Shown here: one piece after another, positions 627-61,290 of the stretch
Layout of the letters: every line of letters starts with the position of its first letter
How positions within the stretch are numbered: position 1 is the first letter of the stretch
Source: Siphonodentalium dalli
Lineage: Eukaryota; Mollusca; Scaphopoda; Gadilida; Siphonodentaliidae
Assembly: GCA_032622095.1 (NCBI GenBank)
Contig: CP136066.1
Span: forward strand, 42,421,835 to 42,485,834
Length of the DNA: 64,000 nucleotides
Direction: 5' to 3'
The notes under the pieces: model-generated
Told to the model about the DNA's origin: nothing
The model's database searches: none
The model's input: the letters and a program-made list of their open reading frames with translations, nothing else
Made by a program: the position numbers and the translations under genes

Positions 627-845
627 TTAACCCTTTCAGTGCCAGGGGCCGATCTCATCGGCCCTAATTTACGGTCTGTACAATCGGCCATATACCTTAA
701 TTGTGCCAATGCATTCTCTTATATATGCGAGTCGACCATAGGTCGCATCGCATATATAAGAGAATGCATTGGCCTAACAATTTTTCATCATTTGTTATTA
801 TTTTTTACAATTTTTTACCATTTTAATAATTTTTTCTTATATTCT
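627..845. mobile_element. TTAA family A MITE, left end only
   Basis: TTAA at 627-630 is followed by CCCTTTCAGTGCCAGGGGCC, the family A terminus. The hairpin cassette lies at 706-772, then a T/A-rich spacer. The family A right end is missing. At its internal TTCTTTAA the sequence switches directly into the family C element at 846, so this is a chimera or an insertion followed by deletion. Confidence 0.7.
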
Positions 846-1105
846 TTAACCCTTCCATGACTGGAGCTTCCAGAAATTTTGTGAAAACCCTATGCCAATG
901 TATTCTCTTATATATGCGAGTCTCCATAGGGAGCCTTGCATATATAAGAGAATAAATTGGTCTAACAATATTTACTTGACTTCTAAGTCAGTCCATTCTC
1001 TTATATATGCGAGGCTCTCTTTGGGAGACTTGCATATATAAGAGAATGCACTGGCACAGGATCTTTAATGCTGCACCAGTGCAGCTCCCATCATGAAAGG
1101 GTTAA
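846..1105. mobile_element. TTAA family C MITE, complete
   Basis: TTAA flanks at 846-849 and 1102-1105. The ends read CCCTTCCATGACTGGAGC and CTCCCATCATGAAAGGG. Two hairpin cassettes lie inside, at about 896-958 and 990-1054, in inverted order relative to each other. Family C hairpins have the loop TCTCCCATAGGGAGCC, whereas families A, B and D have TCGACCATAGGTCGCC. The TTAA target and CCC start suggest a piggyBac-like mobiliser, by inference. Confidence 0.8.
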
Positions 1106-1149
1106 AGTTTATCTAATATTGATCCCCAATAGCTGGTTTAGTTAGATTT

Positions 1150-1380
1150 TATACAGATTTATTGTCGTTTCAGCCGCTTGGCCATATTACGACACTGTTA
1201 GTGTTACGGGTGATTAAAAGACCATACAGGGGGTTAATTTCACCAGGAAATTACTCCACTGCACATAAAAACCACCGACCAGAAAACAACTGAAACCTTG
1301 GCCAGATACACAAATCAGGACACCTTCCCAAATCCACCATGTATCTTACCAACTGAGCCAACATGGGCCCCAATCCATAT
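1150..1380 (-). mobile_element. Probable tRNA-derived SINE
   Basis: On the minus strand, near 1362-1340, TGGCTCAGTTGGTAAGA matches the tRNA box A consensus (TRGCNNAGYNGG). No clear box B follows, so the head is degenerate. The body ends in GGCTGAAACGACAATAAAT near 1150-1170. A related 3' end (CAGCCGAAACAATTGTAAA) occurs at 46660-46680 and 47350-47372, and a second box-A-like word on the minus strand at 2738-2760. Not recognised as a named SINE. Confidence 0.45.
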
Positions 1381-1439
1381 TAGAATGTAAAATGACATGG
1401 TGTGTGAAAACCTGAGCGAGGTGTTATTTTATAGCCCAT

Positions 1440-1830
1440 CTTATGTATGCATTGTAAGAGTTAAAGTGATATGAAACACTCCGATTGGGTGATCAAATGG
1501 AAATTGAGAATAATCTTGCTCAAAGTAGTTATTTGTTACAAATATTAATCCAAATTGACGATACACACCATCATTCTCATATATTGATTGAATGCCATGA
1601 ATATCAATGGCGAAATCATTTGTGTTAGATTATCGCCGATAGTTGCGTCCCGAATCGAGATGTAAATATTTACAATTGGGCATAGTTCAGACGATGTTTT
1701 CTATGGAGTGGCATGGTCAATTTCTTTGAAATTTTCAGCGATGTTAGCAGAATGATGCATTCCCCAGGTTGGCATAGCACCTGGGTACTAACTTATCAAG
1801 TTCACGCACCCGATCAAGTCCATAATATGT
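1440..1830 (+). repeat. Family R dispersed repeat, copy 1
   Basis: A roughly 390 bp stretch recurs at 9565-9825 in the same orientation and at 36933-37335 inverted. Shared landmarks are TAAATATTTACAATT, a TATGGAGT...ATGGTC block and GATGTTAGCAGAATG. The termini and type are not clear. Confidence 0.65.
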
Positions 1831-1892
1831 CTTTAACTATTCCATGACTGGCGCTTCCTGAAATTTTCCTAAAACCCCATGCCAATGCATTA

Positions 1893-2491
1893 TCTCATAT
1901 ATATTTTGAAGACCTCTGTATGTTTGTATGTCTGTCATTTATACAAATCTACGATTCTCGACCGATCGGGACGAAACTTGGTACGTGTGTGTAGTTTGAC
2001 CAGGCGGTGGACATTGTCGTATTGGCGAGCCCGTGCGGCGACCGCTTCGCGCATGCGCAGACGAGATCTCGGAAACGGGTGGAGCTATCGACTTGAAATT
2101 TGCTATGTGAATGTATCTTGCCCCGGATACGAATTTATTCGGGTCGCCGAGCCCGTGCGACGCCAGCTTCGCGCATGCGCAGACGAGATCTCGGAAACGA
2201 GTGGAGCTATCAACTTGAAATTTGGTATGTGAATGTATCTTGCCCTGGATACGAATTTTATCGGGTCGCCGAGCCCGTGCAACGCCAGCTTCGCGCATGC
2301 GCAGACGAGATCTCGGAAACGGGTGGAGCTATTGACTTGAAATTTGCTATGTGAATGTATCTTGCCCCGGATACGAATTTTATCGGGTCGCCGAGCCCGT
2401 GCGACGCCAGCTTCGCGCATGCGCAGACCAGATCTCGGAAACGGGTCGAGCTATCGACTTGAAATTTGGTTTTTGAATAGCCCGGACAACG
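1893..2491 (+). mobile_element. Helitron-like fragment carrying a tandem repeat
   Basis: The start, TCTCATATATATTTTGAAG, lies directly after an A and resembles the 5' end of the Helitron at 15420. A T/G-rich TCTGTATGTTTGTATGTCTG tract follows, as in many invertebrate Helitrons. The right end stops at GCCCGGACAACG, part of the usual 3' hairpin (compare CCCGGACGAAGTCGGG at 15737). No CTAG end is present, so it is truncated. Confidence 0.5.
2027..2480 (+). repeat. 122-bp tandem repeat, about 3.7 units
   Basis: Unit starts (GAGCCCGTGCG/A) lie at 2027, 2149, 2271 and 2393, exactly 122 bp apart. Each unit contains CGCGCATGCGCAGACGAGAT and GGTGGAGCTATCGACTTGAA-like blocks and is more GC-rich than its surroundings. 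The period is not divisible by three. The overlapping open frames on both strands are artefacts of the repeat. Confidence 0.9.
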
Positions 2492-2811
2492 TATGTATAA
2501 GAGAATGCATTGGCCTAACAATATTTACCAATACCTTGTAAGCCAGCTAGTGCATTCTCATATATATGCAAAGCTCCCTATGGGAGACTCACATATATAA
2601 GAGAATGCGTATCCTTAGTCACACCTCTAGTTGAACTTGTTTGTCTGAACATTTTCTAAGGGTCGAACTACTGGTTAATGAGTATTTAAGTATAGAAAGG
2701 GTTAAATTATTAATTAATGGTTTATAATGCACTATGCATCTTACCAACTGAGCCACACCCACCTCCCCTCCCCTCACCCACAGATCCAGTATACAGTTTC
2801 ATTGACAGCTA

Positions 2812-3084: not shown

Positions 3085-3439
3085 TACATGCAGAGAGTCA
3101 ATGTCCCATGAGTTGCTGGCATCAGCTTTTAATTTAGAATTTAAATTATCAATGTAAAATTGTGATTAATCAGCTTGAAGATGTTCCATTAGGCGATTGC
3201 ACAATAATAAATTGCTATCTGCATTGCTGCGTTCTGCCGAAAAATGGATCATGCGCTTGAATATGTCGAGTTAGAATTGGGAAATTGACGTTGTCACCAT
3301 ATATCTCTCCTTCTGTCAGGTTTTTGTCGTTTGATGCGTAAGAAGCTATTGATGATAATTCCTTATTAGGAGATGGGTGCATCACACTTGCACCTGTTTA
3401 TCCGCAAATTTTAAATTTACAGTAAAATGCAGGGCTGTT
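3085..3439. other. Low-copy stretch with one duplicated block
   Basis: About 3225-3345 (ATGGATCATGCGCT to TTTTTGTCGTTTGATGC) is repeated at about 4500-4625. Nothing else was identified. Confidence 0.55.
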
Positions 3440-3634
3440 TAAGGGCCCCTTTAGGGAGTGTTGCATATAAAAGAGAATGCACTGGCTTACAAGGTCATGG
3501 TAAAGATTGTTAGACCAGTGCATTCTCTTATACATGCGAGGCTCAATCCCTATGGGAGACTCGCATATATAAGATAATGCATCGGCACAGGGTTTTCGCA
3601 AAATTTCAGGAAGCTCCAGTCATTGAAGAGTTAA
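3440..3634. mobile_element. TTAA family C MITE, reversed and truncated
   Basis: Two hairpin cassettes (about 3450-3490 partial and 3513-3575) are followed by CAGGAAGCTCCAGTCATTGAAGAG and TTAA at 3631-3634, the family C end in reverse. The other end is missing. Confidence 0.65.
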
Positions 3635-4378: not shown

Positions 4379-5277
4379 AATATTTGTAAGTCCTGATTCT
4401 CCATTCTCATGACACGGGGGGACAAACAATCTACCAGACGGATTAAACTCTTTCATTACACTGCTTTCCCAATTGCACAAAAATAAATTGATATTTCCAT
4501 CGCTGATTGAGTCCTTCCAAAAAATGGATCATGCGCTATAATATATCGAGTTAGAATCGGGAAATTGACATTGTCGCCACATATCTCTCCTTCTGTCAAG
4601 TTTTTGTCGTTTGATGCATAAGAAACTATTGGTTTTTATGTTTTTACCATGCCCAGATAATATCCAGATAACATCCAGATAACAGAGTGTTAGTTTTCAG
4701 TTAGTGATGGATTTGCCAAAAATTGCCCGTTCAGGAAAAGACATTTTTAATGGAATTTTGAAGGACACAGTTGGGATAAATGAAATTTTATAATATTAAG
4801 TTGAAATTGAGCAACAGTCTAATTCTTTTTCAGTTTTGATACCACAAACTTTGAAAATTCATTGATTGAAATTTTTGAAAAAGAACATTAAAGTCATCAG
4901 AATCTCAAAATCTGAAGATTGTTTTTGGCAATAAAAATGTTTAACGGAATTTATCAAATTTAACTAAAAATGTTTTGGGGTTTTGATGCTGAAATTTCAT
5001 CAAAATTTTCTCTGACCGATGCTGAAAGTTTATAACATCTTCGTTCTTAGGTGAATAAGAGTGTATTACTGAATATTACATCTGAATCCAGTACCGAAAT
5101 GATTTGGCACACACGAAATCTCAAAAAAGGAGACATTATTGGCTGTAAAATATAGAAAAATACATTTATGACCTTGAAATTTTGTATGCAGGTAGTCTAA
5201 AGTTTGGTTTATGCATCAAAATTAGATAGTTTTGATATTGAATTGAAATCAATGAAAATATCTGAAAATGATTATGC
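4379..5277. other. Low-copy AT-rich stretch
   Basis: Contains the second copy of the block at 3225-3345 and a short CCAGATAA direct repeat at about 4655-4685. No coding or transposon structure was seen. Confidence 0.5.
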
Positions 5278-5565
5278 ACAGTTCCCAAATGGTGAATATT
5301 GTGATGTGCACCCATTGGGAACCTCGATTACACAATGTGTCTCTTCTAATTTGGGGATGTAAAGAAACTAAACTAAAAAGGAAATAGAAGTTTATATAGA
5401 AATTTGATAATAAAGAAACTTTCAGAGAAGATGAGGCATAAGCAGAATGAGATTCCCAGAAGGTGAATTTAGTGATGCTAGCCCACTGTGCTGGGTAGGG
5501 TCACTAAATTCACCCTCTGGGGACCTCATTCTTCAAATGTCCAGCACCATATTGTCAGACCTGCT
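5278..5565. mobile_element. Family H MITE, left-truncated
   Basis: Begins in the conserved middle (GTTCCCAAATGGTGAATATT), continues through the second hairpin at about 5446-5533 and ends near TTGTCAGACCTGC. The left hairpin is absent. Confidence 0.7.
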
Positions 5566-5624
5566 CAGGGTATTCCTCAATGAAACTTTGAGAAAATTAA
5601 ACCCCAACTAACATTCTCTTTGCA

Positions 5625-6094
5625 TTAACCCTTTCAGTGCCAGGGGCCGATCTCATCGGCCCTAATTTACGGTCTGTAGAGCCCTAAAAAAAACTATTAA
5701 AAAAAACTAAAACCATTTTTGTTTTGTTTTTGTTTTGGGTTGAATTTTTTTGGGTATGCTTAAGCATGCTATAGTGAATTTAAAAACAAACTGGATAAAA
5801 CCTTAGGGGCATGTTATCACCAAGTATTCATAGTAATAATTTTGATGCCCATGAAAAACGTAAGATTCCCTGGCACTAAACCTACAAAATAAGTCTGTTA
5901 AAGAATATAAGAACAAATTATTAAAATTGTAAAAAATTGTAAAGAATAATAACAAATGATGAAAAATTGTTAGGCCAATGCATTCTCTTATATATGCGAG
6001 GCGACCTATGGTCGACTCGCATATATAAGAGAATGCATTGGCACAGGGTATATGGGTTCGATACAAAAAAAGGACCTGGCACTCAAAGGGTTAA
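5625..6094. mobile_element. TTAA family A MITE, long copy
   Basis: TTAA at 5625-5628 and 6091-6094. Ends CCCTTTCAGTGCCAGGGGCC and CCTGGCACTCAAAGGG. One hairpin cassette (about 5975-6042). It carries an extra roughly 200 bp segment at about 5680-5880 not present in the copies at 17280 and 58069. Confidence 0.8.
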
Positions 6095-10782: not shown

Positions 10783-11019
10783 TGTCGATACGGTACGAGT
10801 ACCATCCCGTAAGAATAGAAGGAGAGTGCCTCGAGTGAGGCTTCTATATTTCGATGATAGCCCAAGAGCCGCATTGACAAACCCATTCTTATACTTGTCA
10901 CTGTTTTATTACACGCTGCCCATCCTAAAATCCATTAATTGGAGAAAAATGACTTACAAAGTTTATTCAGGGACAGACAAGGCTTGTTTTGTCATTTGTG
11001 AAGATGTTTTTATTGCATA

Positions 11020-11304
11020 CAGTAATGTCCTAATTAATCGACTGCTTAACCACAGCAGAATTATAGGTAACTTTTCAGGATTTAGTCGGAAATATGGCTT
11101 GTTGCCATTCATCGGAAAGCTCTCGAGGCCAATGCATTCTCTTATATATGCGAGGCGACCTATGGTCGACTCGCATATATAAGAGAATGCATTGGCCTCG
11201 AGAGCTTTATGATGAATGGCAACAAGCCATATTTCCCACTAAATCCTGAAAAGTTACCCATAATTCTGCTGTGGTTAAGCAGTCGATTAATTAGGGCATT
11301 ACTG
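11020..11304. mobile_element. Family P palindromic MITE with hairpin cassette at its centre
   Basis: TA at 11018-11019 and 11305-11306. Both arms carry the private AATTAATCGACTGC variant. At the dyad centre, directly after GAAAGCTCTCGAGG, sits a complete TTAA-family hairpin cassette (11129-11195). The palindrome therefore runs unbroken through the cassette, with only a few mismatches between the arms. Confidence 0.9.
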
Positions 11305-11394
11305 TAGTTCCTGTGTCATGGTCGAAACGAACGTCATTTACATCGTGTGACATCAACATCTTCCAATTATACACATACATGTATGTGTGGAATT

Positions 11395-14111: not shown

Positions 14112-14450
14112 CTATTTATATAGATAATTCTTTCTTTTGCCTAAAGCGTCGGAGAGATACTTAGATAATTGTCGTGGATAACATATTATTTCTGCTAATG
14201 CATCATCAAATTTTCCTTCCGATACCAATTCAGAGATTATTTTGGGTACAGATTTTAATAGTAATACCCTGAGGTCATGATAATGAGGGCAACGCAAGAG
14301 AAAGTGAGTTTCATCTTCAACCTCGTTCATGTTACATATGACGCAAATATGTTCATGGAGTTTCTCATTCTTGAAACGTCCAGTTTCGACCCTTAAACAG
14401 AGATTGGCACATATACATGTATATGCCTGAGATGAGTACAGAATAGGCTT
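14112..14450 (-). pseudogene. C-terminal tail of a non-LTR retrotransposon reverse transcriptase
   Basis: Reading the minus strand from an upstream stop near 14451 to the stop at 14112-14114 gives about 112 codons. Motifs in order: LCLRVETGRFKNEKL, then CVIC (codons starting near 14346), then THFLLRCPHYHDLR (near 14290). LR-ETGRF followed by CxxC and HFLxxC is the zinc-knuckle tail seen after the reverse transcriptase domain in several metazoan LINE groups. The catalytic domain (YxDD) and endonuclease are absent, so this is a 5'-truncated remnant and cannot move by itself. The downstream reading, through about 55 more codons to the stop, is intact. The clade (RTE, CR1 or other) cannot be told from this tail. 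Confidence 0.7.
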
Positions 14451-17279: not shown

Positions 17280-17531
17280 TTAACCCTTTGAGTGCCAGGG
17301 GCCGATCTCATCGGCCCTAAACCTACAAAATAAGTCTGTTAAAGAATATAAGAATAAATTATTAAAATTGTAAAAAATTGTAAAAAAACAAAACAAAAAA
17401 ACAAAAAAATGGCCAATGCATTCTCTTATATATGTGAGGCGACCTATGGTCGACTCGCATATATAAGAGAATGCATTGGCACAGGGTATATGGGTTGACA
17501 CAAAAATCGGACCTGGCACTCAAAGGGTTAA
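17280..17531. mobile_element. TTAA family A MITE, complete
   Basis: TTAA at 17280-17283 and 17528-17531. Ends CCCTTTGAGTGCCAGGGGCC and CCTGGCACTCAAAGGG. One hairpin cassette (17414-17480). This is the cleanest family A copy. Confidence 0.9.
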
Positions 17532-19095: not shown

Positions 19096-20065
19096 TTCCT
19101 GTTTGGTTATTACGGTAGGGAGATTGTTTATTGTTCAACTTCCACGATGGGGGAGATCTCGAGCCTCAGTATACAATATAATACAACATGAATAACAAGA
19201 TGAAAGAAAACAGCATGACTCGGAGAGATGACTGAGTACCCTGTGCCAATGCATTCTCTTATATATGCGAGTCGACCATAGGACGCCTTGCATATATAAG
19301 AGAATGCATTGGCCTAACAATTTTTTACAATTTTAATAATTTTTTCTTGTATTCTTTAACAATTTTATAATTTCACCCATACAGAGCCCCAGACAAACAT
19401 GAGCAGACAACACTCTTCTATATGCTTCTATATATGTGTGGGGCTCCCTGCAGGGTAATGGATTTTATGTCCTAAAAATTGTAAGAAACATTTATTTAAA
19501 AAAAATTATAAAAAATTGTTAGGCCAATGCATTCTCTTATATATGTGAGGCGACCACTTGCTGTTTGGTTATTACGGTAGGGAGATTGTTTATTGTTCAA
19601 CTTCCACGATGGGGAGAGCCTCAGTATATACAATATAATACAACATGAATAACAAGATGAAAGAAAACAGCATGACTAGGAGAGATGACTGAGTACCCTG
19701 TGCCAATACATTCTCTTATATATGCGAGTCGACCATAGGTCGCCTCGCATATATAAGAGAATGCATTGGCCTAACAATTTTTTACAATTTTAATAATTTT
19801 TTCTTGTATTCTTTAACAATTTTATAATTTCACCCATACAGAGCCCCAGACAAACATGAGCAGACAACACTCTTCTATATGCTTCTATATATGTGTGGGG
19901 CTCCCTGCAGGGTAATGGATGTTTTTTATTTTATGTCCTAAAAATTGTAAGAAACATTTATTTAAAAAAAATTATAAAAAATTGTTAGGCCAATGCATTC
20001 TCTTATATATGCGAGACGACCTATGGTCGACTCGCATATATAAGAGAATGCATTGGCACAGGGTA
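19096..20065. mobile_element. Family D hairpin MITE, tandemly duplicated (about 460 bp shift)
   Basis: Family D has the hairpin cassette, a T/A-rich spacer, a constant core (CAGAGCCCCAGACAAACATG to TGTGGGGCTCCCTGCAGGG), a second spacer and a second, inverted cassette. Hairpins lie at about 19246-19312, 19523-19550 (half), 19703-19770 and 19991-20058. The 140 bp preceding the first copy (GTTTGGTTATTACGGTAGGG) reappears at 19563, so flank and element were duplicated together and the break fell inside the second hairpin. Confidence 0.8.
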
Positions 20066-20650
20066 AAAAAATATATATGTCCACTCGATCGCCATGAAAA
20101 TTATGAACTGGACACTATAGCAATCATGGACCCCATGAATGTGATGTATGGCATAACATGTATTGTTTTTGATGTATCGGTTCACTGACACACAGCAGAA
20201 ACATAGCCGTGGAGTGAACAATAGAGACTACACTATAATATGATAATTGTCCGTTGTCTGGACTGTTATCTGGGAGAAGTAACAATGGCTGAAATCAATT
20301 TACACCCCCCATCATCACTCTTCTATGTTCCCCATGAGTATTATGCAACACAAGAGCCCATTTATAAAACCATTATTGTGAGTAAGAACACCATTATAAT
20401 AAGTAAATTTACATTAAATATTCTGAGAGTTCAAGCAAAGGGGATGGGTATACATGTACGAGAGAACATGTATGAGAGAGAAGTCACTTCTCCATAGGAC
20501 TAAAATAGGGAGAAGTGGCACATTTTAGGGAGAAGATGTCTCCCAAATAGATGTCTCCCAAATAGATGTCTCCCAAATCACCCTCTAGACGGCTGGTCTC
20601 GGCAGATGAGAGGCCCAGTACAGCTTGATATTGGTATGGTTGGGTTTTTA
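20066..20650. other. No gene recognised
   Basis: Low-copy DNA with a small tandem AGATGTCTCCCAAAT repeat (three copies, about 20535-20580). Confidence 0.45.
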
Positions 20651-21090
20651 AAAGGCCTATTTTTTTACCCTGTGCCAATGCATTCTCTTATATATGCGAG
20701 TCGACCATAGGTCGCCTCGCATATATAAGAGAATGCATTGGCCTAACAATTTTTTACAATTTTAATAATTTGTTCTTGTATTCTTTAACAATTTTATAAT
20801 TTCACCCATACAGAGCCCCATGCAGACAAACATGAGCAGACGACACTCTTCTATATGCTTCTATATATGTGTGGGGCTCCCTGCAGGGTAATGGATGTTT
20901 TTTATTTTATGTCCTAAAAATTGTAAGAAACATTTATTTAAAAAAAATGATAAAAAAATTGTTAGGCCAATGCATTCTCTTATATATGCGAGGCGACCTA
21001 TGGTCGACTCGCATATATAAGAGAATGCATTGGCACAGGGTAAAAAAAATCCCGACTTACAACTGGATTTGATATGGCGGGTCACATTGT
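20651..21090. mobile_element. Family D hairpin MITE
   Basis: Starts ACCCTGTGCC with a hairpin at 20675-20742. The constant core follows, then the inverted hairpin at 20967-21033 and the right end ACTGGATTTGATATGGCGGG followed by TCACAT. Confidence 0.8.
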
Positions 21091-26738: not shown

Positions 26739-27061
26739 TTAACCCTTTACCCAAGAAAACGGCCAAAACCGGCCAAATAAAGCTGCAACAGCCTAAAATA
26801 TCTTCGGTCTGTCTCAATAGAACCATACAAATATGGATATCATTGGAACCGGCTCCTTGACCACATTGTGATAGTTACAGTTATGCCCTGTGCCAATGCA
26901 TTCTCTTATATATGCGAGTCGACTATAGGTCGCCTCGCATATATAAGAGAATGCATTGGCACTTTTTACCATTTATTCTTACATTCTTTGTAACCTATGG
27001 TCGACTCACATATATAAGAGAATGCATTGGCACAGGGCCCTTCTGTTGGGTAAAGGGTTAA
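26739..27061. mobile_element. TTAA family B MITE
   Basis: TTAA at 26739-26742 and 27058-27061. Ends CCCTTTACCCAAGAAAACGG and CCCTTCTGTTGGGTAAAGGG. Hairpin cassette at 26895-26961; the second cassette is reduced to its right half (about 26999-27034). Confidence 0.88.
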
Positions 27062-29465: not shown

Positions 29466-30029
29466 TAGATCCCACAGATTTGTCTGACCTTTTCCCACTC
29501 AGACAATAGAAATTGGTGACCTTTTAACCTTTACGACAACGTTTGTGACAAATTATTTAAAGGGTAGAGAGCTCATTTTCTGTTTAAATGAATCCCAATA
29601 AGTCTCCGACAGTTTAGTAAAGAGTTGTTTTTATCCGACACGTTACATGGAGCAGAGTTAAGAAATTAAAGGGGGCTGCATTTTTTTTAATTCTTCTTAT
29701 CCCAGAGAAACCCATCATCAGTGTTACGGACTATCACAAGGAGTTTAATTACAAGAACGGAACTGTCATTAACTAGCTTTTAAATTGACAGACGTTGTGT
29801 GAGAAAAGATCACATGGGCAGTTTAAGACTTGCGCTGTGCTTTAATGCATATTGCTGTGTTACTGATACAAGAGCAGAGTAATCTTCAAACCTTCCGTTG
29901 TTCCAAACTAGAAACTGGATTTACCTCCTCATGCATTTCATGTGGGCTGTGTCACTAATATGGGAGCAGAGCAGTCTAAGTCAGCTGGCCAGAATTTCCA
30001 AACTCCCCAATGTCTGGGGCGTTAAGGGG
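29466..30029. other. No gene recognised
   Basis: Low-copy DNA. About 29705-29770 resembles part of the SINE-like body at 1150-1250 (AGTGTTACGG...TTTAATT), only weakly. Confidence 0.4.
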
Positions 30030-30420
30030 GAGAAATTTACTGTGCCAATGCATTCTCTTATATAAGAGAATGCATTGGCCCAACAATTTTTTATCATTTT
30101 TTTTAAATAAATGTTTCTTACAATTTTTAGGACATAAAATAAAAAAACATCCATTACCCTGCAGGGAGCCCCACACATATATAGAAGCATATAGAAGAGT
30201 GTCGTCTGCTCATGTTTGTCTGGGGCTCTGTATGGGTGAAATTATAAAATTGTTAAAGAATACAAGAAAAATTATTAAAATTGTAAAAAATTGTTAGGCC
30301 AATGCATTCTCTTATATATGCGAGGCGACCTATGGTCGACTCGCATATATAAGAGAATGCATTGGCACAGGGTAAAAAAATCCCGACTTACGACTGGATT
30401 TTATATGGCGGGTCACATAT
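30030..30420. mobile_element. Family D hairpin MITE, core inverted
   Basis: The first hairpin (30044-30079) has lost its loop and is only ATATAAGAGAATGCATTGG-type arms. The core runs opposite to the copies at 19-21 kb. The second hairpin is full (30299-30365). The right end is ATTTTATATGGCGGGTCACAT. Confidence 0.8.
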
Positions 30421-32481: not shown

Positions 32482-32512
32482 TATGTTCAGATAATAAGAA
32501 TGGTCGTTTGTT

Positions 32513-32922
32513 GAACTTATTATCTGAACATTTCCAAAGGGATAACTACTCATCACTGATATGCTTTAGTATAGAAAGGGTTAACTTATTATCTGAACAG
32601 TTCCTATGGGGTAACTACTCATCAATGATGCTTTAGTATAGGAAGGGTTAACTTATTATCTGAACAGTTCCTATGGGGTAACTACTCATCAATGATGCTT
32701 TAGTATAGGAAGGGTTAAACTTATTATCTGAATATTTCCTATTGGATAACTACTCATCAATGATGCTTTAGTATAGACAGGGTTGAACTTATTATCTGAA
32801 CATTTCCTGTGGGATAACTACTCATCAATGATGCTTTAGTATAGAAAGGGTTGAACTTATTATCTGAACATTTCCTGTGGGATAACTACTCATCAATGAT
32901 GTATTGGTATAGAAAGGGTTAA
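32513..32922 (+). repeat. Tandem array of six TTAA family E right ends
   Basis: Six units of 67-68 bp: TTATTATCTGAACA, TAACTACTCATCAATGATGC, TTTAGTATAGAAAGGG, TTAA. The terminal TTAA or TTGA words fall at 32581, 32648, 32715, 32783, 32851 and 32919. Each unit is the terminal segment of family E including its target motif. Confidence 0.88.
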
Positions 32923-34096: not shown

Positions 34097-34347
34097 CTTA
34101 ACCCTTCCATGACTGGAGCTTCCTGAATTTTTGTGAAAACCCTGTGCCAATGCATTCTGTTATATATGTGAGTCTCCCATAGGGAGCCTCGCATATATAA
34201 GAGAATACATTGGACTAAAATTATTTACCTTGACCTTGTAAGCCAGTGCATTCTCTTATATATGCGAGGCTCCCTATATATGAGAGTATGCACTGGCGCA
34301 GGATTTTTAATGCTGCACCAGCACAGCTCCCGTCGTGAAATGGTTAA
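34097..34347. mobile_element. TTAA family C MITE, complete
   Basis: TTAA at 34097-34100 and 34344-34347. Ends CCCTTCCATGACTGGAGC and CAGCTCCCGTCGTGAAATGG. Two hairpin cassettes (34147-34213 and 34242-34296). Confidence 0.88.
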
Positions 34348-43846: not shown

Positions 43847-44093
43847 TATTGTATATCTGATATCAGTTGTTTTATCATGTAATATCTTGAATAATAAGCC
43901 ATTCCCGCCCACTCATTGATGATTACAGAGTTAATGCCTGTGTTTACTTGATAATTATATCAATGGTAATTATGCACAATGACTATATTCCTACATAGAA
44001 AACATTAAAAGTGTGATGTCATCGCTGCGGCGCTGCCGTAATAAATGTTGACCAAATCGGGAGATTAGTGAATTGTCCAACATCTGTTCGTGT
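43847..44093 (+). repeat. Segment duplicated at about 54595-54840
   Basis: About 245 bp (TGTATATCTGATATCAGT to TTGTCCAACATCTGTTCGTG) recurs at 54605-54838. In both places it ends at a family C left terminus, so DNA and element junction were copied together. Confidence 0.8.
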
Positions 44094-44525
44094 TAACCCT
44101 TTCGTGATGGCAGCTGAACTCTGGTGCAACATTAAACATGCCATTAGGTGCCTCGCATATATAAGAGAATGCACTGGCTTACAGGGTCAAGGTAAATATT
44201 GTTAGGCCAATGTATTATCTTATATATGTGAGGCTCCCTATGGGAGACTTGCATATATAAGAGAATGAATTGGAATAGAGTTTTTCGCAAAATTTCAGGA
44301 AGTTCCAATCATGGAAGGGAGAACAATTTTTTTACCAAGTGAACTCTTCCATCAGTTATAAAAGTATATAAACTGGAATGGTATATTATTAATCTACTCG
44401 AAAAGATAATACACGTCCAGAAGGATTCCTATTCATTGGTGGAAAAGCCTAACAATATTTACCTGACCTTGTAAGCCTCGCATATATAAGATAATGCACT
44501 GGCACAGGATCTTTAATGCTGCACC
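44093..44525. mobile_element. TTAA family C/E composite, scrambled
   Basis: TTAA at 44093-44096 and a family C end. A half hairpin (44152-44180) and a full hairpin (44206-44272) follow, then CATGGAAGGG without TTAA. Family E body sequence (44345-44405) and a further half hairpin with AATGCTGCACC (44474-44525) follow. Confidence 0.65.
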
Positions 44526-44526
44526 C

Positions 44527-44796
44527 CTCATACTCACGCCTAGAAATAGTGTGTCTGTCATTTGCAGAATGAGGTCCCCAGAGAGTGAATTTAGTGATGC
44601 TACCCCGCATAGCGGGCTAGCATCACCAAATTCACCCTCTGGGGACCTCATTCTGCTTACACCTCAGCAGAATGAGGTTCCCAGAGGGTGAATTTGGTGA
44701 TGCTAGCCAGCTATGCGGGGTAGCATCACTAAATTCACCCTATGGGGACCTCATTCTGCAAATGACAGACACGCTATTTCAAGGCTTGCTCATACT
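44527..44796. mobile_element. Short family H hAT-like MITE, 8-bp TSD
   Basis: The element at 44535-44788 (254 bp) has ends CACGCCTAGAAATAGTGTG and CACGCTATTTCAAGGCTTG. A perfect 8-bp TSD CTCATACT lies at 44527-44534 and 44789-44796. The usual middle is gone, so two complete hairpins stand back to back. Confidence 0.93.
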
Positions 44797-44849
44797 ATTT
44801 TAATTTTGGACTGGCAAAAACTGCTCTGATGGCAGACTGTATGTTCATC

Positions 44850-45676
44850 ATTGGAACCGGCTCCTTGACCACATTGTGATAGTTACAGTTATGCCCTGTG
44901 CCAATGCATTCTCTTATATATGCGAGTCGACCGTAGGTACTTTGTATGCGGACCCAGGACACTGTGGCATCCCCCATAGCTCATTCCGATGATAAAATAA
45001 AAAAAAGAAAAGTATATTAACCCTTTACCCAACAAACCGGCCAAAACCGGCCAAATAAAGCTTCAACAGCCTAAAATATCTTCGGTCTGTCTCAATAGAA
45101 CCATACAAATATGGATATCATTGGAACCGGCTCCTTGACCACATTGTGATAGTTACAGTTATGCCCTGTGCCAATGCATTCTCTTATATATGCGAGTCGA
45201 CCGTAGGTACTTTGTATGCGGACCCAGGACACTGTGGCATCCCCCATAGCTCATTCCGATGATAAAATTAAAAAAAGTAAAGTATATTAACCCTTTACCC
45301 AACAAACCGGCCAAAACCGGCCAAATAAAGCTTCAACAGCCTAAAATATCTTCGGTCTGTCTCAATAGAACCATACAAATATGGATATCATTGGAACCGG
45401 CTCCTTGACCACATTGTGATAGTTACAGTTATGCCCTGTGCCAATGCATTCTCTTATATATGCGAGTCGACCGTATGTTGCCTCGCATATATAAGAGAAT
45501 GCATTGGCCTAAAAAAAATCTTTTTTTACCATTTTTTCTTACATTCTTTAACAATTTTATAATTTTTAATGTGTTAAGCCAATGCATTCTCTTATATATG
45601 CGAGGCGACCTATGGTCGACTCGCATATATAAGAGATAGCATTGGCACAGGGCCGTTCTGTTGGGTAAAGGGTTAA
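44850..45676. mobile_element. TTAA family B MITE, triplicated
   Basis: Units start at TTAA 45017-45020 and 45287-45290 (270 bp apart). An earlier partial unit begins at about 44850. The last unit runs to the family B right end (TTAA 45673-45676) with two hairpins (45439-45508, 45581-45647). In the first two units the hairpin stops at the same base (GTCGACCGTAGGT) and continues into ACTTTGTATGCGGACCCAGG. Confidence 0.88.
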
Positions 45677-48049: not shown

Positions 48050-48448
48050 TTAACCCTTTACCCAACAAACCGGCCAAAACCGGCCAAATAAAGCTTCAAC
48101 AGCCTAAAATATCTTCGGTCTGTCTCAATAGAACCATACAAATATGGATATCATTGGAACCGGCTCCTTGACCACATTGTGATAGTTACAGTTAGCCCTG
48201 TGCCAATGCATTCTCTTATATATGCGAGTCGACCATAGGTCGCCTCGCATATATAAGAGAATGCATTGGCCTAAAATAAATCTTTTTTTAACACTTTTTA
48301 CAATTTTTTCTTACATTCTTTAACAATTTTATAATTTTTAATGTGTTAAGCCAATGCATTCTCTTATATATGCGAGGCGACCTATGGTCGACTCGCATAT
48401 ATAAGAGAATGCATTGGCACAGGGCCCTTCTGTTGGGTAAAGGGTTAA
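48050..48448. mobile_element. TTAA family B MITE, complete
   Basis: TTAA at 48050-48053 and 48445-48448. Ends CCCTTTACCCAACAAACCGG and CCCTTCTGTTGGGTAAAGGG. Two full hairpins (48206-48272, 48351-48417) in inverted order. Best family B copy. Confidence 0.93.
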
Positions 48449-50715: not shown

Positions 50716-50729
50716 ATTAAAGTGCCTAG

Positions 50730-50912
50730 TCCGATTTTTGTATCAACCCATATTTCCTTGATCATTTATCAAATTTATTGATTATAATAATGTGATACAT
50801 TGATGGAAAGAGCTGTAAGAGCTCTTTCCATCAATGTATCACATTATTATAATCAATAAATTTGAAAAATGATCATGGAAATATGGGTTGATACAAAAAT
50901 CGGACTTGAAAG
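50730..50912. mobile_element. TTAA family F palindrome, degenerate ends
   Basis: Arms AGTCCGATTTTTGTATCAAC / GTTGATACAAAAATCGGACT, extended by CACATTATTATAATCAATAA and its complement, with the centre near GAGCTGTAAGAGCTC. The second copy at 61801 has clean TTAA flanks; here they are lost. Confidence 0.8.
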
Positions 50913-50919
50913 GGAATCG

Positions 50920-51100
50920 AATCCTTCCATGACTGGAGCTTCCTGAAAGTTTGCAAAAATCTTGTGCCATCTGCAATGCATTCTCTTTTTATGCGAGTCT
51001 CCCATAGGTAAGCCAGTGTATTCTGTTATATATACATATATAAGATAATGCACTGGCACATGATCTTTAATGCTGCACCAGTGCGGTTCCCATCATGAAA
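50920..51100. mobile_element. TTAA family C MITE, degenerate
   Basis: CCTTCCATGACTGGAGCTTC to CCCATCATGAAAGGG. Hairpins eroded (about 50965-51010 and 51010-51057). At 51101 it runs directly into a family H right end (ACCTCATTCTGCAAAAG). Confidence 0.65.
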
Positions 51101-51179
51101 GGGACCTCATTCTGCAAAAGTTAGACACGCTATATTCCCATGCTTGCTCCATGCAGTTGTATGAGACACCTCAGGTTTA

Positions 51180-52461: not shown

Positions 52462-52925
52462 CATATGTGACCCGCCATATCAAATTCAGTCAGAAGTCGG
52501 GATTTTTATACCCTGTGCCAATGCATTCTCTTATATATGCGAGTCGACCATAGGTCGCCTCGCATATATAAGAGAATGCATTGGCCTAACAATTTTTTAC
52601 AATTTTAATAATTTGTTCTTGTATTCTTTAACAATTTTATAATTTCACCCATACAGAGCCCCAGACAAACATGAGCAGACGACACTCTTCTATGTGCTTC
52701 TATATATGTGTGGGGCTCCCTGCAGGGTAATGGATGTTTTTTTATTTTATGTCCTAAAAATTGTAAGAAACATTTATTTAAAAAACATGATAAAAAATTG
52801 TTAAGCCAATGCATTCTCTTATATATGCGAGGCGACCTATGGTCGACTCGCATATATAAGAGAATGCATTGGCACAGGGTAAAAAAAATCCCGACTTCCG
52901 ACTGGATTTGAAATGGTGGGTCAAC
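52462..52925. mobile_element. Family D hairpin MITE, both ends present
   Basis: Left end ATGTGACCCGCCATATCAAA, right end TTTGAAATGGTGGGTCAACAT. The inverted repeats run about 45 bp inward to CCCTGTGCC / GGCACAGGG. Hairpins at 52517-52583 and 52807-52873. The flanks ACATAT on both sides may be a TSD, but one base is ambiguous. Not TTAA. Confidence 0.85.
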
Positions 52926-54385: not shown

Positions 54386-54401
54386 TAGCTATAATCATTG
54401 T

Positions 54402-55316
54402 TTAACCCTTTCAAAACTGGAGCTTCCTGAAATTATGCGAAAACACTGTGCCAATGCATTCTCTTATATATATGCGAGTCTCCCATAGGGAGCCTCCCAT
54501 ATATAAGACAATGCATTGGCCTAACATTAATATTTACCTTGATCTTGTAAGCCAGTGCATTCTCTTATATATGCGAGGCTCCCAATAAAACAATACTTAT
54601 ATATATGGTATATCTGATATCAGTCATTTTATCGTGTAATATCTTGCATAATAAGCCATTCCCACCTACCACCTGCCCACTCATTGATGTGTTTATTTGA
54701 TAATTATATCATGCAATGCTGATTATGCACAATGACTGTATTCCTACATAGATAACATTAAAAGTAGGATGTTATAACTGCCATAATAAATGTTGACCAA
54801 ATCGTGAGATTAGCACCTTGTCCAGCATCTGTTCGTGCCAACCCTTCCATGACGGGAGCTTCCTGAAAAATTGTGAATAACCTGTGCCAATACATTCTCT
54901 TATAATATACAGTGATGCCCTAAATAATCGACTCCTTAACCACAGCAGAATTATGGGTAATTTTTTAGGATTTAATTGGAAATATGGCTTGTTGCCATTC
55001 ATCGGAAAGCTCTCACTGAGAGCTTTCCAATGAATGGCAACAAGCCATATTTCCGACTAAATCCTGAAAAATTACCCATAATTCTGCTGTGGTTAAGGAG
55101 TCGATTATTTAGGGCATTACATGTATAGGGAGCCTCACATATATAAGAGAAATTTTTAGAATACATTGGCCTAACTATATTTACCTTGACCTTGTATACC
55201 AGTGCATTCTCTTATATATTTTAGGCCCCCTATGGGAGACTTGCATATATAAGAGAATGCACTGGCACAGGATCATCAATGCTGCACTAGCGCAGCTCCC
55301 GTCATGAAAGGGTTAA
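54402..55316. mobile_element. TTAA family C composite with nested family P copy
   Basis: The outer TTAA words are at 54402-54405 and 55313-55316. A first hairpin (54451-54515) and a half hairpin (54553-54590) are followed by the segment shared with 43847-44093. Next comes a second family C left end (54840), whose hairpin is broken at TATAATA by a family P MITE (54910-55122). The hairpin remainder and a final hairpin (55199-55265) follow. Confidence 0.75.
54910..55122. mobile_element. Family P MITE nested in a hairpin cassette
   Basis: TA at 54908-54909. Ends CAGTGATGCCC and GGGCATTACATG. Both arms share AAATAATCGACTCC. It is inserted into the TATATA core of the family C hairpin. Confidence 0.85.
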
Positions 55317-57401: not shown

Positions 57402-57835
57402 TTAACCCTTTCATGATGGGATCTGCGCTGGTGCAGCATTAAAGATCCTGTGCCAGTGCATTCTCTTATATATGAGAGTCTCCCATAAGGAGCCTCGCAT
57501 ATATAAGAGAATGCACTGGCTTACGTCAATGTAAATATTCTTAGGCCAATTTTAATGTACAGTAATGTCCTAAATAATCTACCCCAAAACCACAGCAGAA
57601 TTATGGGAAATTTTTCAGGATTTAGTTGGAAATATGGCTTGCTGCCATTCATCGGAAAGCTCTCGGTGAGAAAATTTTCCCATAATTCTGGTGTGGTTAA
57701 AGGGTCATATACTTCAGGCATACTATATTCTCTTATATATGCGATGCTCCCTATGGGTGACTTGCATATATTAGAGAATGCATTGGCACAGGGTTTTCGT
57801 AAAATTTCAGGAAGTTCCAGTCATGAAAGGGTCAA
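57402..57835. mobile_element. TTAA family C MITE (reversed) with nested family P copy
   Basis: TTAA at 57402-57405; the right flank has mutated to TCAA (57832-57835). Hairpins at 57455-57523 and about 57725-57785. A shortened family P MITE at 57560-57725 (TA at 57558-57559) interrupts the spacer and runs into the second hairpin. Confidence 0.8.
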
Positions 57836-58068: not shown

Positions 58069-58302
58069 TTAACCCTTTGAGTGCCAGGTCGATTTTTGTA
58101 TCAACCCATATACCCTGTGCCAATGCATTCTCTTATATATGCGAGTCGACCATAGGTCGCCTCGCATATATAAGAGAATGCATTGGCCTAACAATTTTTT
58201 GTGTTTTTTTACAATTTTAATAATTTATTCTTATATTCTTTAACAGACTTATTTTGTAGGTTTAGGGCCAATGAGATTGGCCCCTGGCACTCAAAGGGTT
58301 AA
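58069..58302. mobile_element. TTAA family A MITE, complete
   Basis: TTAA at 58069-58072 and 58299-58302. Ends CCCTTTGAGTGCCAGG and CCTGGCACTCAAAGGG. One hairpin (58120-58186), opposite in orientation to the copy at 17280. Confidence 0.92.
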
Positions 58303-58436: not shown

Positions 58437-58771
58437 TTAACCCTTTACCCAACAAACCGGCCAAATAAAGCTGCAACAGCCTAAATTATCTTGGGTCTGT
58501 CTCAATAGAACCATACAAATATGGATATCATTGGAACCGGTTCATTGACCACATTGTGATGGTTACAGTTATGCCCTGTGCCAATGCATTCTCTTATATA
58601 TGCGAGTCGACCATAGGTCGCCTCGCATATATAAGAGAATGCATTGGCCTAAAAAAAAATTTAATGTGTTAAGCCAAAGCATTCTCTTATATATGCGAGG
58701 CGACCTATGGTCGACTCGCATATATAAGAGAATGCATTGGCACAGGGCCGTTCTGTTGGGTAAAGGGTTAA
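58437..58771. mobile_element. TTAA family B MITE, complete
   Basis: TTAA at 58437-58440 and 58768-58771. Ends CCCTTTACCCAACAAACCGG and CCGTTCTGTTGGGTAAAGGG. Hairpins at 58581-58647 and 58674-58740, separated by only 26 bp. Confidence 0.93.
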
Positions 58772-59239
58772 ATAAGAAAAAAAGATAAATCACCAGTGAA
58801 AGGCGGAATGTCACTATATTGCCCCTCGTAAGTTTAGTTACGCCCACCGTTTGTATACTAGTGTACAAATTCTTGTTTCGCTTGGGCGCTGGAGTTTACG
58901 CTGGGGGTTTTATTTATAGATATGGGAATTTCTGGGACGGATTTTAAAGTCGAACTGCACGACAAGGAGGCCGAGTCCGGTAAAAGGTGTTGTTGGGAAT
59001 TTCAATTTCGTTTATTGTCCTTTACAGTATTTTGTCAATAATGTTGATTTTTGGTTTGTGACAAGCTATGTCAATTACAAATAAAAGAAATGAAAAGATA
59101 TTTTGTAAGTCTTATATTTCAACTTTTATAGACATTTTTCGTTCTGCAGCCCACTGAGGGTTGTGGTCGTGGTCAGCCACCGGTTCGTTAATTAGGTGTT
59201 GGTTGTTATTGTTATTTTAACGGAATTCGGAGTTGGTCA
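58772..59239. other. No gene recognised
   Basis: Low-copy DNA. Confidence 0.4.
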
Positions 59240-59790
59240 TTCGCGAAACCAATATATATTTGTCCCCCGAAAAATTAATTTTCGGGGTACTATAGAAACG
59301 GGCTCCATCCGTTGTGCCATCCGTTCGTCCGTCCGTTCGTCACACTTTAGAGTACCTTCATGGTGTAATCATCTCCTCCTACAGATTTCATCCCAGAGAT
59401 TTGAATTTTCAGTATGAGGGTACCTTCATGGTGTAATCAACTCCTCCTACAATTTTCATCCTAGAGATTTGAAACTTCAGAATATTGTTCCCCATATATT
59501 GAAGATGTGCAACATGTATATAGATGACGGAAAAATTATTTTTTGACAGAGTTATCAACCCTTTTCGACTTAGAAAAAAAAAACAAAAAAACAATCTGTA
59601 TGAGGGTACCTTCACGGTGTAATCAACTCCTCCTACAGTTTTGATCGTAGATATTTGAAACTTCAGAGTATTAGTATTGTTACCCACATATGGGAGATGT
59701 GCAACATGTATATAGATGATGGAACAATTACTTTTTTTACGGAGTTGTTAACCCTTTTCGACTTAGAACATTTCAACATTTTTTTAAATT
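59240..59790 (+). repeat. Short hairpin plus irregular tandem repeat
   Basis: CCCCGAAAAATTAATTTTCGGGG (59256-59278) forms a hairpin and is followed by a CCGTTCGTCCGTCCGTTCGT tract. Then three copies of GTACCTTCATGGTGTAATCA start at about 59353, 59420 and 59605, the last two with TGTGCAACATGTATATAGAT downstream. Possibly a decayed mobile element. Confidence 0.6.
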
Positions 59791-60710
59791 TCTTTAACAA
59801 AGCGGCATCGACTTGCCACGTTGTCGGGGGACACTGTGGTCGGCTGACATTTTATATATTCTATAATTACAAACATGGGTATATAATATATGATCTTGAG
59901 CACATTACCATTTCTGACATTGGTTTTCTTGTAATATAGTTGCAAGGAACAAATATAACTCACCTCCACATGAAAGCACACTATCTATCCATAGGTTTTT
60001 CCATCAACTCAAATTAAAAACGATGTAATGATAGACACCTAGACTGGTGTGTCACACCAATAATTCATCAGACGATGACTTCTGTATTCCTATTCATCAC
60101 GGAGGTATATATCTACCAATTGTCCACTCCATCACTCATATCGCATCTACACTCAATATAATATGATATGGTATCATGTCTATACTCTATATAATATCAT
60201 TGCATCTCGCTGACATTCACACTAAGTCATATCCTATGCTTGTTTTATTCATTTATCATATCAAATCTGTGTAATGGAAAACTCCCCAAAGATTTTATAT
60301 GTCCCCATGGATCTGCAGAATATCCGATAAACCTCGAACCAGCTTTGTCTTTGTCATCACGTGTTTGGCGAGAGACAACCTGGTATATGATACTGTGTCA
60401 AAGGTTTTTGTATAATATTTACCATGTGGGAGTACATCATTTATGTCCATTATCAGATACAGTCAATTAATGGAAATCAATCTAATCCAATTTGGGTCAT
60501 GTTTGTGTTTTTGGCCATTAAAAAATATATTCATAAACATGTGCAAATAATGATATATTTTCTATTTCTTCTTCAATGTCTATTAACAATTTCTAGAGAA
60601 ATCACCAGTGAAAGGTGGTGTATGTAACAAAATTGGCCTTTATTCTGGTCACGGAGGACTTGATAGTCTATATACAGGGAACAAATATAACTCACCTTTA
60701 TCATCTCTCT
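59791..60710. other. No gene recognised
   Basis: Low-copy AT-rich DNA with short motif-less open frames. Confidence 0.4.
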
Positions 60711-60856
60711 TCTACACCCAGGGACGCCGGAGAAGGGGGGCATGCGGGGGCACTTGCCCTGACCCAGGGGAGTCCAGTGGGTACCCAAAAAGTGCCCTCC
60801 TGACTGGTTTGCCCATCTCCTTGCCCTTTGCTGCTTCCGGCATCCCTGTCTACACT
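60711..60856. mobile_element. Family G hAT-like MITE, short copy
   Basis: The element at 60719-60848 (130 bp) has ends CAGGGACGCCGGAGAAG and TGCTTCCGGCATCCCTG. TSD TCTACACC / TCTACACT, 7 of 8 matching. Most of the interior is deleted relative to 10439 and 40793. Confidence 0.85.
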
Positions 60857-61144
60857 CTATACAGGGAGGTGATGCTGCTTCAATGATCTTACTAAATTGG
60901 TCTTCTATCATCAGGGTTTCTGCTGGGGTTAAAATGTCCATAGACCCTAGGATAGTTTTGGCTCATCGTGCGCAGATTTTAAAATTCCATGTCCAAAAAA
61001 ATAAAAGTACTATTTTCTTGCACCAGAGAATAGTTTTGGGCAGTTTTATTACCACTGTAATTTGAAATTTACACCAGTAACACCTGGTTACATGGTATTT
61101 CCATAAATAAATGTGGTATGTCACTAAATTGGCCTTACTGGTCT
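60857..61144. other. No feature seen
   Basis: Low-copy DNA. Confidence 0.4.
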
Positions 61145-61290
61145 TTAACCCTTTCATGATGGGAACTGTGCTGGTGCAGCATTAAATATCATGTGCCAGT
61201 CCATTCTCTTATATATGCGTGTCTGCCTATCATATATAAGAGAATGGACTGGATTACAAGGTCTGGCTAATATATTCTCTTATTTTATAT
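61145..61290. mobile_element. TTAA family C MITE (reversed), truncated
   Basis: TTAA at 61145-61148, then CCCTTTCATGATGGGAACTG. One hairpin with CCAGTCCATTCTC arms (61196-61252). The far end is lost near GGTCTGGCTAATATATTCTC. Confidence 0.75.

What the first reader, a model, noticed from the sequence alone, without database searches (positions are those of the whole stretch)
627..61252. One hairpin cassette shared by TTAA elements with unrelated termini
A roughly 67 bp hairpin (CCAATGCATTCTCTTATATA, then TGCGAG, loop, and the inverse) occurs about 40 times. It lies inside at least four element families whose terminal sequences do not resemble each other (A: AGTGCCAGG, B: ACCCAACAAACCGG, C: CCATGACTGG, D: GACCCGCCATATC). 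Usually there are two cassettes per element, the second being the reverse complement of the first. The loop comes in two dialects: families A, B and D use TCGACCATAGGTCGCC, family C uses TCTCCCATAGGGAGCC. This suggests a mobile hairpin module, or termini swapped around a conserved core.
Basis: partly seen in the sequence, partly recalled or inferred. Interest (0 to 1): 0.72.

Follow-up and report, generated by a model that had tools for sequence, protein, structure and literature searches.

The report
Hairpin module shared by unrelated mini-transposons
In one animal-sized genome, the same 69-letter DNA hairpin sits inside several families of tiny jumping genes whose outer ends are largely unrelated, which suggests that the hairpin core is copied between elements while each element jumps using its own ends.

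Summary
The hairpin is real: 45 cassettes in the window, 33 with both arms; the arm gives 0 matches in shuffles. Corrections: the A, B and C ends all begin TTAACCCTT(T/C), a piggyBac-type tip, and are unrelated only beyond about 10 bp. D has no TTAA. A carries one cassette, not two. I add a fifth host, E, a mariner-like palindrome with one bare cassette at its exact centre.

Cassettes of A, B and D do not sort by family (n=19, p=0.55), although their ends are unalignable, so divergence from one ancestor fails for these. C is a distinct dialect. Swapping runs both ways: of ten A-type ends matched, three (three elements) lead into the hairpin core and seven (four elements) into an unrelated palindromic core. 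One locus elsewhere joins a C-type end to an A/B/D-dialect core.

Best reading: a passenger hairpin core copied between non-autonomous elements by repair or template switching, then amplified by each element's own ends. Exchange is well supported; the mechanism is inferred. Genome-wide search did not complete, so exchange with C rests on one clear case. New variant of a known kind.

The parts
627..845 (+). A element, left end and one cassette (706-772); right end missing, C element adjoins at TTAA 846
5625..6094 (-). A element, long form, one cassette 5975-6041, TTAA both ends
17280..17531 (-). A element, short form, one cassette 17413-17479, TTAA both ends
58069..58302 (+). A element, short form, one cassette 58120-58186, TTAA both ends
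26739..27061 (+). B element, cassette 26893-26959 and a partial one ending 27030, TTAA both ends
44847..45286 (+). B left parts in a 270-bp tandem duplication with cut cassettes beginning 44901 and 45171
45287..45676 (+). B element, cassettes 45441-45507 and 45579-45645, TTAA both ends
48050..48448 (+). B element, cassettes 48203-48269 and 48351-48417, TTAA both ends, paralogous empty sites found
58437..58771 (+). B element, cassettes 58581-58647 and 58674-58740, TTAA both ends
846..1105 (+). C element, cassettes 895-960 and 988-1054, TTAA both ends
34098..34347 (+). C element, cassettes 34147-34213 and shortened 34243-34296, TTAA both ends
1833..2613 (+). C element broken up, cassettes beginning 1882 and ending 2513 cut, 2547-2613 two-armed
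3419..3634 (-). C element remnant, cassettes ending 3485 and 3515-3585
44093..44319 (-). C element, cassettes ending 44177 and 44207-44273; right end without TTAA
44436..44524 (+). C remnant, one-armed cassette ending 44502 beside a piece of the C right end
50918..51103 (+). C element with a shortened cassette 51013-51056 and decayed ends
54402..55316 (+). two broken C elements; mariner-like palindrome E inserted in the cassette beginning 54887
57402..57835 (-). C element, cassettes 57453-57519 and ending 57786, E copy inside; ends TTAA and TCAA
61145..61252 (+). C end with one shortened cassette 61196-61252
19237..20071 (+). D-type core in tandem duplication, cassettes 19246-19312, 19524 (cut), 19703-19769, 19990-20056, without D outer arms
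20666..21087 (+). D element, cassettes 20675-20741 and 20967-21033, only the right outer arm
30040..30418 (-). D element, loop-deleted cassette 30045-30078 and 30299-30365, one outer arm
52465..52925 (+). D element with both outer arms (GTGACCCGCC..), cassettes 52518-52584 and 52806-52872
11018..11306 (.). E: mariner-like palindromic element (TA-CAGT ends) with one bare cassette 11129-11195 at its exact centre
61801..61955 (+). A-type outer ends (44 bp each) around a different core without the hairpin

Best explanation
A, B and C are short non-autonomous piggyBac-type elements (TTAA targets, CCCTT tips). D is an unclassified short element. E is a mariner-like palindromic MITE. Each moves by its own outer ends. 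Inside them sits a passenger core: CCCTGTG, a 69-bp near-perfect hairpin and an AT-rich arm (in E the hairpin alone). The core was copied from one element family into another, most likely by template switching or filler copying during repair of breaks or excision gaps, which a long hairpin would promote by stalling or breaking and by offering homology. Fold-back copying from the hairpin would explain why flanks and cassettes come in mirror pairs. The recipient's ends then amplify the new combination. Shown: the shared core, unrelated ends, no family structure of A/B/D cassettes, two cores for one A end, one cross-dialect chimera, TTAA ends and paralogous empty sites for one B element. Inferred: the copying mechanism, the fold-back step, the transposases.
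For: Cassette distances among A/B/D are as large within as between families (difference -0.0003, p=0.55, 19 cassettes), and the E cassette equals that consensus (71 of 71 bp identical to D), while most ends are no more alike than shuffles past 10 bp. Of 10 A_R-type ends matched in 307 kb, 3 (three elements) lead into the hairpin core and 7 (four elements) into an unrelated palindromic core, switching right after CATAT; two further hairpin-bearing A_R ends lie outside that count, 6042-6094 missed by the pattern and L031 fetched later. L021 9845-9953 joins a C-type end to an A/B/D-dialect cassette and a B/D-like spacer. In the rows shown, BLAST homology of D with A, B and C starts at or within 5 bp of CCCTGTG. 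At E the flanks mirror each other (GCTCTCGAGG / CCTCGAGAGC), and the AGG next to the hairpin equals the core's inner flank. TTAA stands at both ends in 11 of 13 stretches that I listed from a scan for TTAACCCTT. Joined flanks of B 48050 match uninterrupted paralogues at 5 places, with about 17 bp on the left side of the TTAA (one, in L013, inspected). Foldback inversions via ssDNA hairpins are known in yeast (PMC7467729, start of abstract in a search listing).
Against: Only one clear cross-dialect chimera, and its outer tip is degraded (no intact TTAACCC), so it could be an early C relative instead of a swap. C ends keep the C dialect in 16 of 17 readable cases and non-C ends the A dialect in 27 of 27, so exchange with C is rare or old. 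The E case is one copy among the 12 two-armed copies I chose to align; its two arms differ by 4.8%, which fits fold-back no better than other routes. No junction shows a diagnostic microhomology or filler scar. Of 13 joined flanks only B 48050 gave clean empty sites; the hits for 846 and 58437 are weak or gapped at the junction. The genome was sampled (about 288 kb fetched), not searched.
Confidence: 0.6

Rival explanations
1. Functional retention: the hairpin is kept or repeatedly recruited because it helps transposition (a palindromic binding site for the transposase's cysteine-rich domain, as in piggyBac and piggyBat) or yields small RNAs.
For: piggyBac and piggyBat transposases bind subterminal palindromes through CRD dimers (PMC7351741, PMC11707139, passages read). 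Cassettes start 45-47 bp inside the ends A_R, C_L and C_R. On the alignment of 26 cassettes, paired cells (93.1% versus 89.4%) and covariation (0.100 versus 0.052) exceed all 500 shuffles, though relatedness inflates this. In 307 kb, 18 of 18 B tips and 31 of 32 C ends have a cassette within 220 bp.
Against: The number of pairs changed on both sides (5 versus 4.3, reached by 203 of 500 shuffles) and of pair types (14 versus 14.0) is not above chance. The spacing differs elsewhere: about 27 bp at B_R, 149 at B_L and 129 at A_L. A and C already have their own, different dyads at bp 16-34 (A_L) and 17-32 (C_R) of one end (shuffle p 0.007 and 0.014), where piggyBac's palindrome sits, which suggests different transposases; B_L's dyad is not significant (p 0.149). 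The cassette also sits in non-TTAA D and mariner-like E, and four A-type elements do without it.
Confidence: 0.2
2. Self-mobile hairpin: the 69-bp hairpin (or the TA-flanked core CCCTGTG..CACAGGG) is itself a transposable unit that inserts into other elements, favouring palindrome centres.
For: E reads CTCGAG-GCCAATG..CATTGGC-CTCGAG, which could be a 6-bp target duplication. The D-type cores of the window are flanked TA..TA. The core sits at the centre of the D palindrome and the hairpin at the exact centre of E.
Against: CTCGAG is its own reverse complement and lies in a palindrome, so it is no proof of duplication. I saw no duplication at the hairpin in A-D, and B and C lack the flanking TA. 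No copy in unique DNA with a clean duplication was seen among the loci viewed.
Confidence: 0.13
3. Simple divergence: all families descend from one hairpin element whose termini drifted apart.
For: A, B and C share TTAACCCTT(T/C) tips, and C differs from the others in both dialect and ends.
Against: A, B, D and E cassettes are identical in consensus while their ends are unalignable; ends needed for mobility would have to evolve far faster than a passenger hairpin. One A end has two cores.
Confidence: 0.05

Closest known systems
piggyBac-superfamily MITEs
   Same: TTAA on both sides, CCCTT tip (the most conserved tip motif in animal piggyBacs, PMC10813416 passages), short, non-coding, many copies.
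   Different: Families with unrelated ends share one internal hairpin core; no transposase was found to confirm membership.
Galileo chimeric copies, Drosophila mojavensis (PMC3573991, passages read)
   Same: Copies with both TIRs from one subfamily and the inner region from another; attributed to recombination and conversion.
   Different: Galileo swaps occur within one family; here the core crosses families with unalignable ends and at least two TE types.
SINE highly conserved domains and MER6 (PMC6887750, abstract read)
   Same: A conserved module shared by otherwise different elements, there a V domain inside a mariner-derived MITE.
   Different: The abstract describes a SINE domain and no hairpin; this one is a near-perfect palindrome shared among DNA elements.
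Short palindromic repeats of Volvox organelle DNA (PMC2670323, passages read)
   Same: 10-100 nt selfish hairpins, often inserted within one another.
   Different: Mainly organellar and free-standing; here on a chromosome-size contig and, in the copies viewed, nearly always inside short transposons.
piggyBac/piggyBat subterminal palindromes (PMC7351741, PMC11707139, passages read)
   Same: Palindromes just inside the ends of TTAA elements.
   Different: Those are 14-19 bp transposase sites, unrelated in sequence between the two elements; this is 67-69 bp and common to several.

Membership tests
piggyBac superfamily (elements A, B, C) | TTAA target duplication | tested here: met
   TTAA at both ends in 11 of 13 stretches listed. 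They were picked from a scan for TTAACCCTT, so decayed elements (1833, 44093, 50918, 61145) are not among them; one of the 11 (54402-55316) spans two broken elements and one (61801) has no cassette; one reads TTAA/TCAA and one had a wrongly set left end. Joined flanks of B 48050 match uninterrupted paralogues.
piggyBac superfamily (elements A, B, C) | CCCTT-type 5' tip | tested here: met
   motif from PMC10813416
piggyBac superfamily (elements A, B, C) | DDD transposase in an autonomous partner | not testable with these tools
   No ORF of 200 aa or more in the window; 10 of 50 ORFs of 90 aa or more gave no piggyBac domain; genome search not answered (19 tries).
piggyBac superfamily (elements A, B, C) | subterminal palindrome near bp 17-35 of one end | tested here: inconclusive
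   Found in A_L (16-34) and C_R (17-32), not significant in the other four ends tested.
piggyBac superfamily (element D) | TTAA target and CCCTT tip | tested here: not met
   D begins GTGACCCGCC.
MITE | short, non-coding, inverted ends, many copies | tested here: met
   Undisturbed elements of about 230-400 bp; no ORF of 200 aa; 20 cassettes in 201 kb elsewhere.
Tc1/mariner-type MITE (element E) | TA target and CAGT tip | tested here: met
   TA flank at 15 of 19 left ends and 16 of 18 right ends listed; transposase not sought; the CAGT tip as a mariner mark is recalled.
Self-mobile hairpin element | bare hairpin with its own target duplication at several sites | tested here: inconclusive
   One bare copy, in E, with palindromic flanks that cannot decide.

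The most novel reading that the evidence does not exclude
A chromosomal mobile hairpin module with no transposase and no ends of its own: it spreads between different classes of DNA transposon (piggyBac-type, mariner-type, unclassified) by hairpin-primed copying during DNA repair and is then multiplied by each host element, a DNA-transposon counterpart of the conserved domains shared by SINEs.
Probability: 0.3. Interest if true: 0.75.

Novelty: new variant of a known kind. Interest (0 to 1): 0.5.

Why it matters
MITEs are normally grouped by their ends, and an internal core is usually taken to descend with them (general knowledge). Here core and ends have separate histories, so families can be assembled from parts. 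That offers a concrete route for how MITEs with little resemblance to an autonomous element arise, and natural junctions at which to study fold-back and template-switch repair.

Tried and rejected
Rfam: no match in the window at gathering thresholds. tRNA: none. The exact 26-mer in viral contigs: 0. Pfam on 10 of the 50 ORFs of 90 aa or more: only sub-threshold hits, one a zf-RVT trace at 14115-14450. A scan for piggyBac-like protein words that I recalled from memory found nothing. Reading the hairpin as the transposase-binding palindrome: considered and ranked second, because A and C have their own dyads. Reading E as fold-back: kept as inference; the arm comparison did not decide. A first reading that a C element sits at the same internal TTAA of A in two loci was dropped after viewing L031: the second is an ordinary long A element. 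Dropped rows: the distance test used 29 of 33 two-armed cassettes, the four shortened ones (30045, 34243, 51013, 61196) left out; family labels were set by me from the flanks, and three cassettes of the tandem copy at 19246-20056 were called D by their core alone. In one search the dialect counts rest on 46 of 78 rows (two-armed, end score 0.55 or more). The odds did not need changing. Paper searches on chimeric, palindromic or hairpin MITEs listed no title or abstract that describes this cassette; the library holds open-licence papers only.
Full report
What was checked. The 20-bp arm occurs 77 times (up to 3 mismatches) in the 64-kb window and 0 times in 100 shuffles. Pairing the arms (up to 4 mismatches) gives 45 cassettes, 33 with both arms and 12 with one. 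The four folded as single-stranded DNA had z-scores from -10.8 to -13.3. In the two whole A/B copies folded, the stem is 26-27 bp, followed by one or two unpaired bases and an inner stem of 5 bp around a 3-nt loop. The dialects (CGACC/GGTCG or CTCCC/GGGAG) differ by two compensating pairs. In all, 5 of 30 pairs show changes on both sides: those two, the fourth from the outside (A-T or G-C), and the sixth and seventh once each. On the 26 cassettes given to that call (23 distinct), 93.1% of cells pair against 89.4% in shuffles and covariation is 0.100 against 0.052 (0 of 500 for both); but the number of pairs changed on both sides (5 against 4.3) and of pair types (14 against 14.0) is not above shuffles. 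Relatedness can inflate the first two, and repair templated by the other arm would give the same, so I do not take this as proof of selection.

Where it comes from. The window belongs to an unnamed assembly whose contig C1 is 276.9 Mb long, so a large eukaryote, most likely an animal (inference). Twenty evenly spaced 10-kb pieces plus 1 kb held 20 cassettes, in 8 of the 20 pieces, about 100 per Mb. The window, with 45 in 64 kb, is a dense region.

The hosts. A, B and C end in TTAACCCTT(T/C). TTAA stands at both ends in 11 of 13 stretches that I picked from that scan; decayed elements were not in the list, and one of the 11 spans two broken elements. Joining the two flanks gave hits across the junction for 3 of the 13. 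For the B element at 48050 they match uninterrupted paralogues at five places (70-79% identity, about 17 bp on the left side of the TTAA); the one viewed, in L013, reads straight across with TCAA in place of TTAA. The hits for 846 and 58437 are AT-rich or gapped at the junction and prove nothing. CCCTT is reported as the most conserved tip of animal piggyBac elements (PMC10813416, passages). No transposase was found, so these are piggyBac-type by ends only. A has one cassette (5625-6094, 17280-17531, 58069-58302); whole B and C have two. C carries its own dialect. D (52465-52925) has arms starting GTGACCCGCC and no TTAA. E is a palindrome of two arms of about 105 bp with a TA flank at 15 of 19 left and 16 of 18 right ends and a CAGTAATG tip. 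In E at 11 kb the short tip, 3 bp in most intact copies, is replaced by the bare cassette.

The shared unit. In A, B and D the homology covers CCCTGTG, the hairpin and about 45-60 bp of AT-rich arm; with C it covers CCTGTG, the hairpin and a shorter stretch. In the rows shown, BLAST between the D element and the others starts at or within 5 bp of CCCTGTG, and with E it is 71 bp of 100% identity.

Over 29 of the 33 two-armed cassettes (four shortened ones left out), between-family distances among A, B, D and E (means 0.007-0.022) are no larger than those within A, B and D (0.015-0.030). A permutation test for A/B/D gives a difference of -0.0003, p=0.55, n=19; C against the rest is clearly separate (0 of 2000 permutations). 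I compared distances rather than trees, and family labels were set by me from the flanks. The outer ends past 10 bp are no more alike than shuffles for most pairs, with two weak exceptions of 21 comparisons, uncorrected (A_R/B_R p=0.034, A_R/D p=0.038); the other three below 0.05 are the two ends of one family. Two cassettes of one element (7 pairs) are on average closer (0.039) than cassettes of different elements (0.055), a comparison that includes C and was not tested. So for A/B/D/E the cassette history and the terminus history disagree.

Swaps in both directions. Scanning 307 kb (window plus loci), 10 A_R-type ends were matched: 3, from three elements, lead into the hairpin core and 7, from four elements, into an unrelated palindromic core, the change coming right after CATAT. 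The pattern missed one more hairpin copy (6042-6094), and in L031 (fetched later) an A end with the CCAAG variant seen in other-core elements leads into the hairpin. All 18 B tips, 31 of 32 C ends and all 5 D arms matched had a cassette within 220 bp. In L021 a C-type end (ATGGCGGGAGCTGCACTGGCGCAGCATTAAA) runs into an A/B/D-dialect cassette and a B/D-like spacer; downstream comes what looks by eye like a LINE coding stretch, not a right end, and the outer tip is degraded. L024 5019 may be a second, weaker case: its outer flank looks C-like by eye and its dialect is A, but the script scored that flank nearest D at 0.48, so I do not count it. Against this, 16 of 17 C ends with a readable dialect carry the C dialect, and 27 of 27 non-C ends with a readable dialect carry the A dialect (46 of 78 rows used, two of them with no readable dialect). 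The 13 rows showed no new exception by eye.

Mechanism. Most likely the core is a passenger that was copied between elements during repair. The long hairpin invites stalling and fold-back; in yeast, single-strand hairpins give inverted duplications (PMC7467729, start of abstract only). At E the left junction carries AGG, the core's inner flank, and the right junction mirrors it, as expected if the strand folded at the hairpin and copied its own left side. The same bases can also be read as a palindromic CTCGAG duplication, so self-insertion is not excluded, and the comparison of the two E arms (4.8% apart, against 0 to 18% in the other 11 copies aligned) did not decide. The hairpin also decays at its tip: loop deletions at 30045-30078 and L010 7454-7489, shortened copies at 34243, 51013 and 61196, and a B element in L007 whose first hairpin is lost. 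A role as a transposase site is a fair rival, since piggyBac and piggyBat use subterminal palindromes bound by CRD dimers (PMC7351741, PMC11707139, passages), and the cassette starts 45-47 bp inside A_R, C_L and C_R (but about 27 at B_R, 149 at B_L and 129 at A_L). But one end of A (bp 16-34) and one of C (bp 17-32) have their own, different dyads just where piggyBac has its palindrome, which suggests separate transposases; and D and E carry the hairpin too.

Known relatives. The nearest precedents are chimeric Galileo copies whose inner region comes from another subfamily (PMC3573991, passages), the V domain shared between SINEs and the mariner-derived MITE MER6 (PMC6887750, abstract), and nested selfish palindromes in Volvox organelles (PMC2670323, passages). 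None is the same: here one hairpin core crosses families with unalignable ends.

Limits. Genome-wide search did not complete (19 tries), so exchange with C rests on one clear locus and the bare insertion on one copy. Small RNAs, expression and activity could not be tested.

Noticed in passing
window 44564-44759 and many other places: A second abundant palindromic family (F, GCAGAATGAGGTCCCCAGAG...), many copies across the window; I did not check its copies for the cassette.
   Followed up: no
window 54887-55122 and 57560 onward: Mariner-like E palindromes inserted inside hairpin cassettes of C elements, one apparently at the loop TA with loss of one side.
   Followed up: partly
window 30027-30041 and 30447-30461: The D element at 30040-30418 lies between direct repeats of GGGGAGAAATTTACT (15 bp), long for a usual cut-and-paste target duplication.
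   Followed up: no
window 50729-50905, 61801-61955; L025 8263-8438; L011 4814: A-type outer ends joined to a long palindromic core (TTCCTTGATCATTTTTCAAATTTATTGATTATAATAATGTGATACATTGATGGAAAGAGCTC) instead of the hairpin.
   Followed up: yes
window 31276 and 32510-32920: A further TTAACCCTTTCTATACTAAA family, partly as a 68-bp tandem array, mostly without the cassette (2 of 23 ends have one nearby).
   Followed up: no
window 34492-35846: A 72-bp tandem repeat, 18.8 copies at 93% match.
   Followed up: no
L024 about 5074-5957: An insertion of nearly 0.9 kb with inverted ends GTGCATTTACACTG sits inside the right arm of a cassette.
   Followed up: no
window 17299-17317 (A_L) and 55281-55296 (C_R): Small dyads at bp 16-34 and 17-32 from the tip, the position of piggyBac's CRD site; A shows a compensating change between copies (GGCCGAT../GGCCAAT..).
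   Followed up: partly
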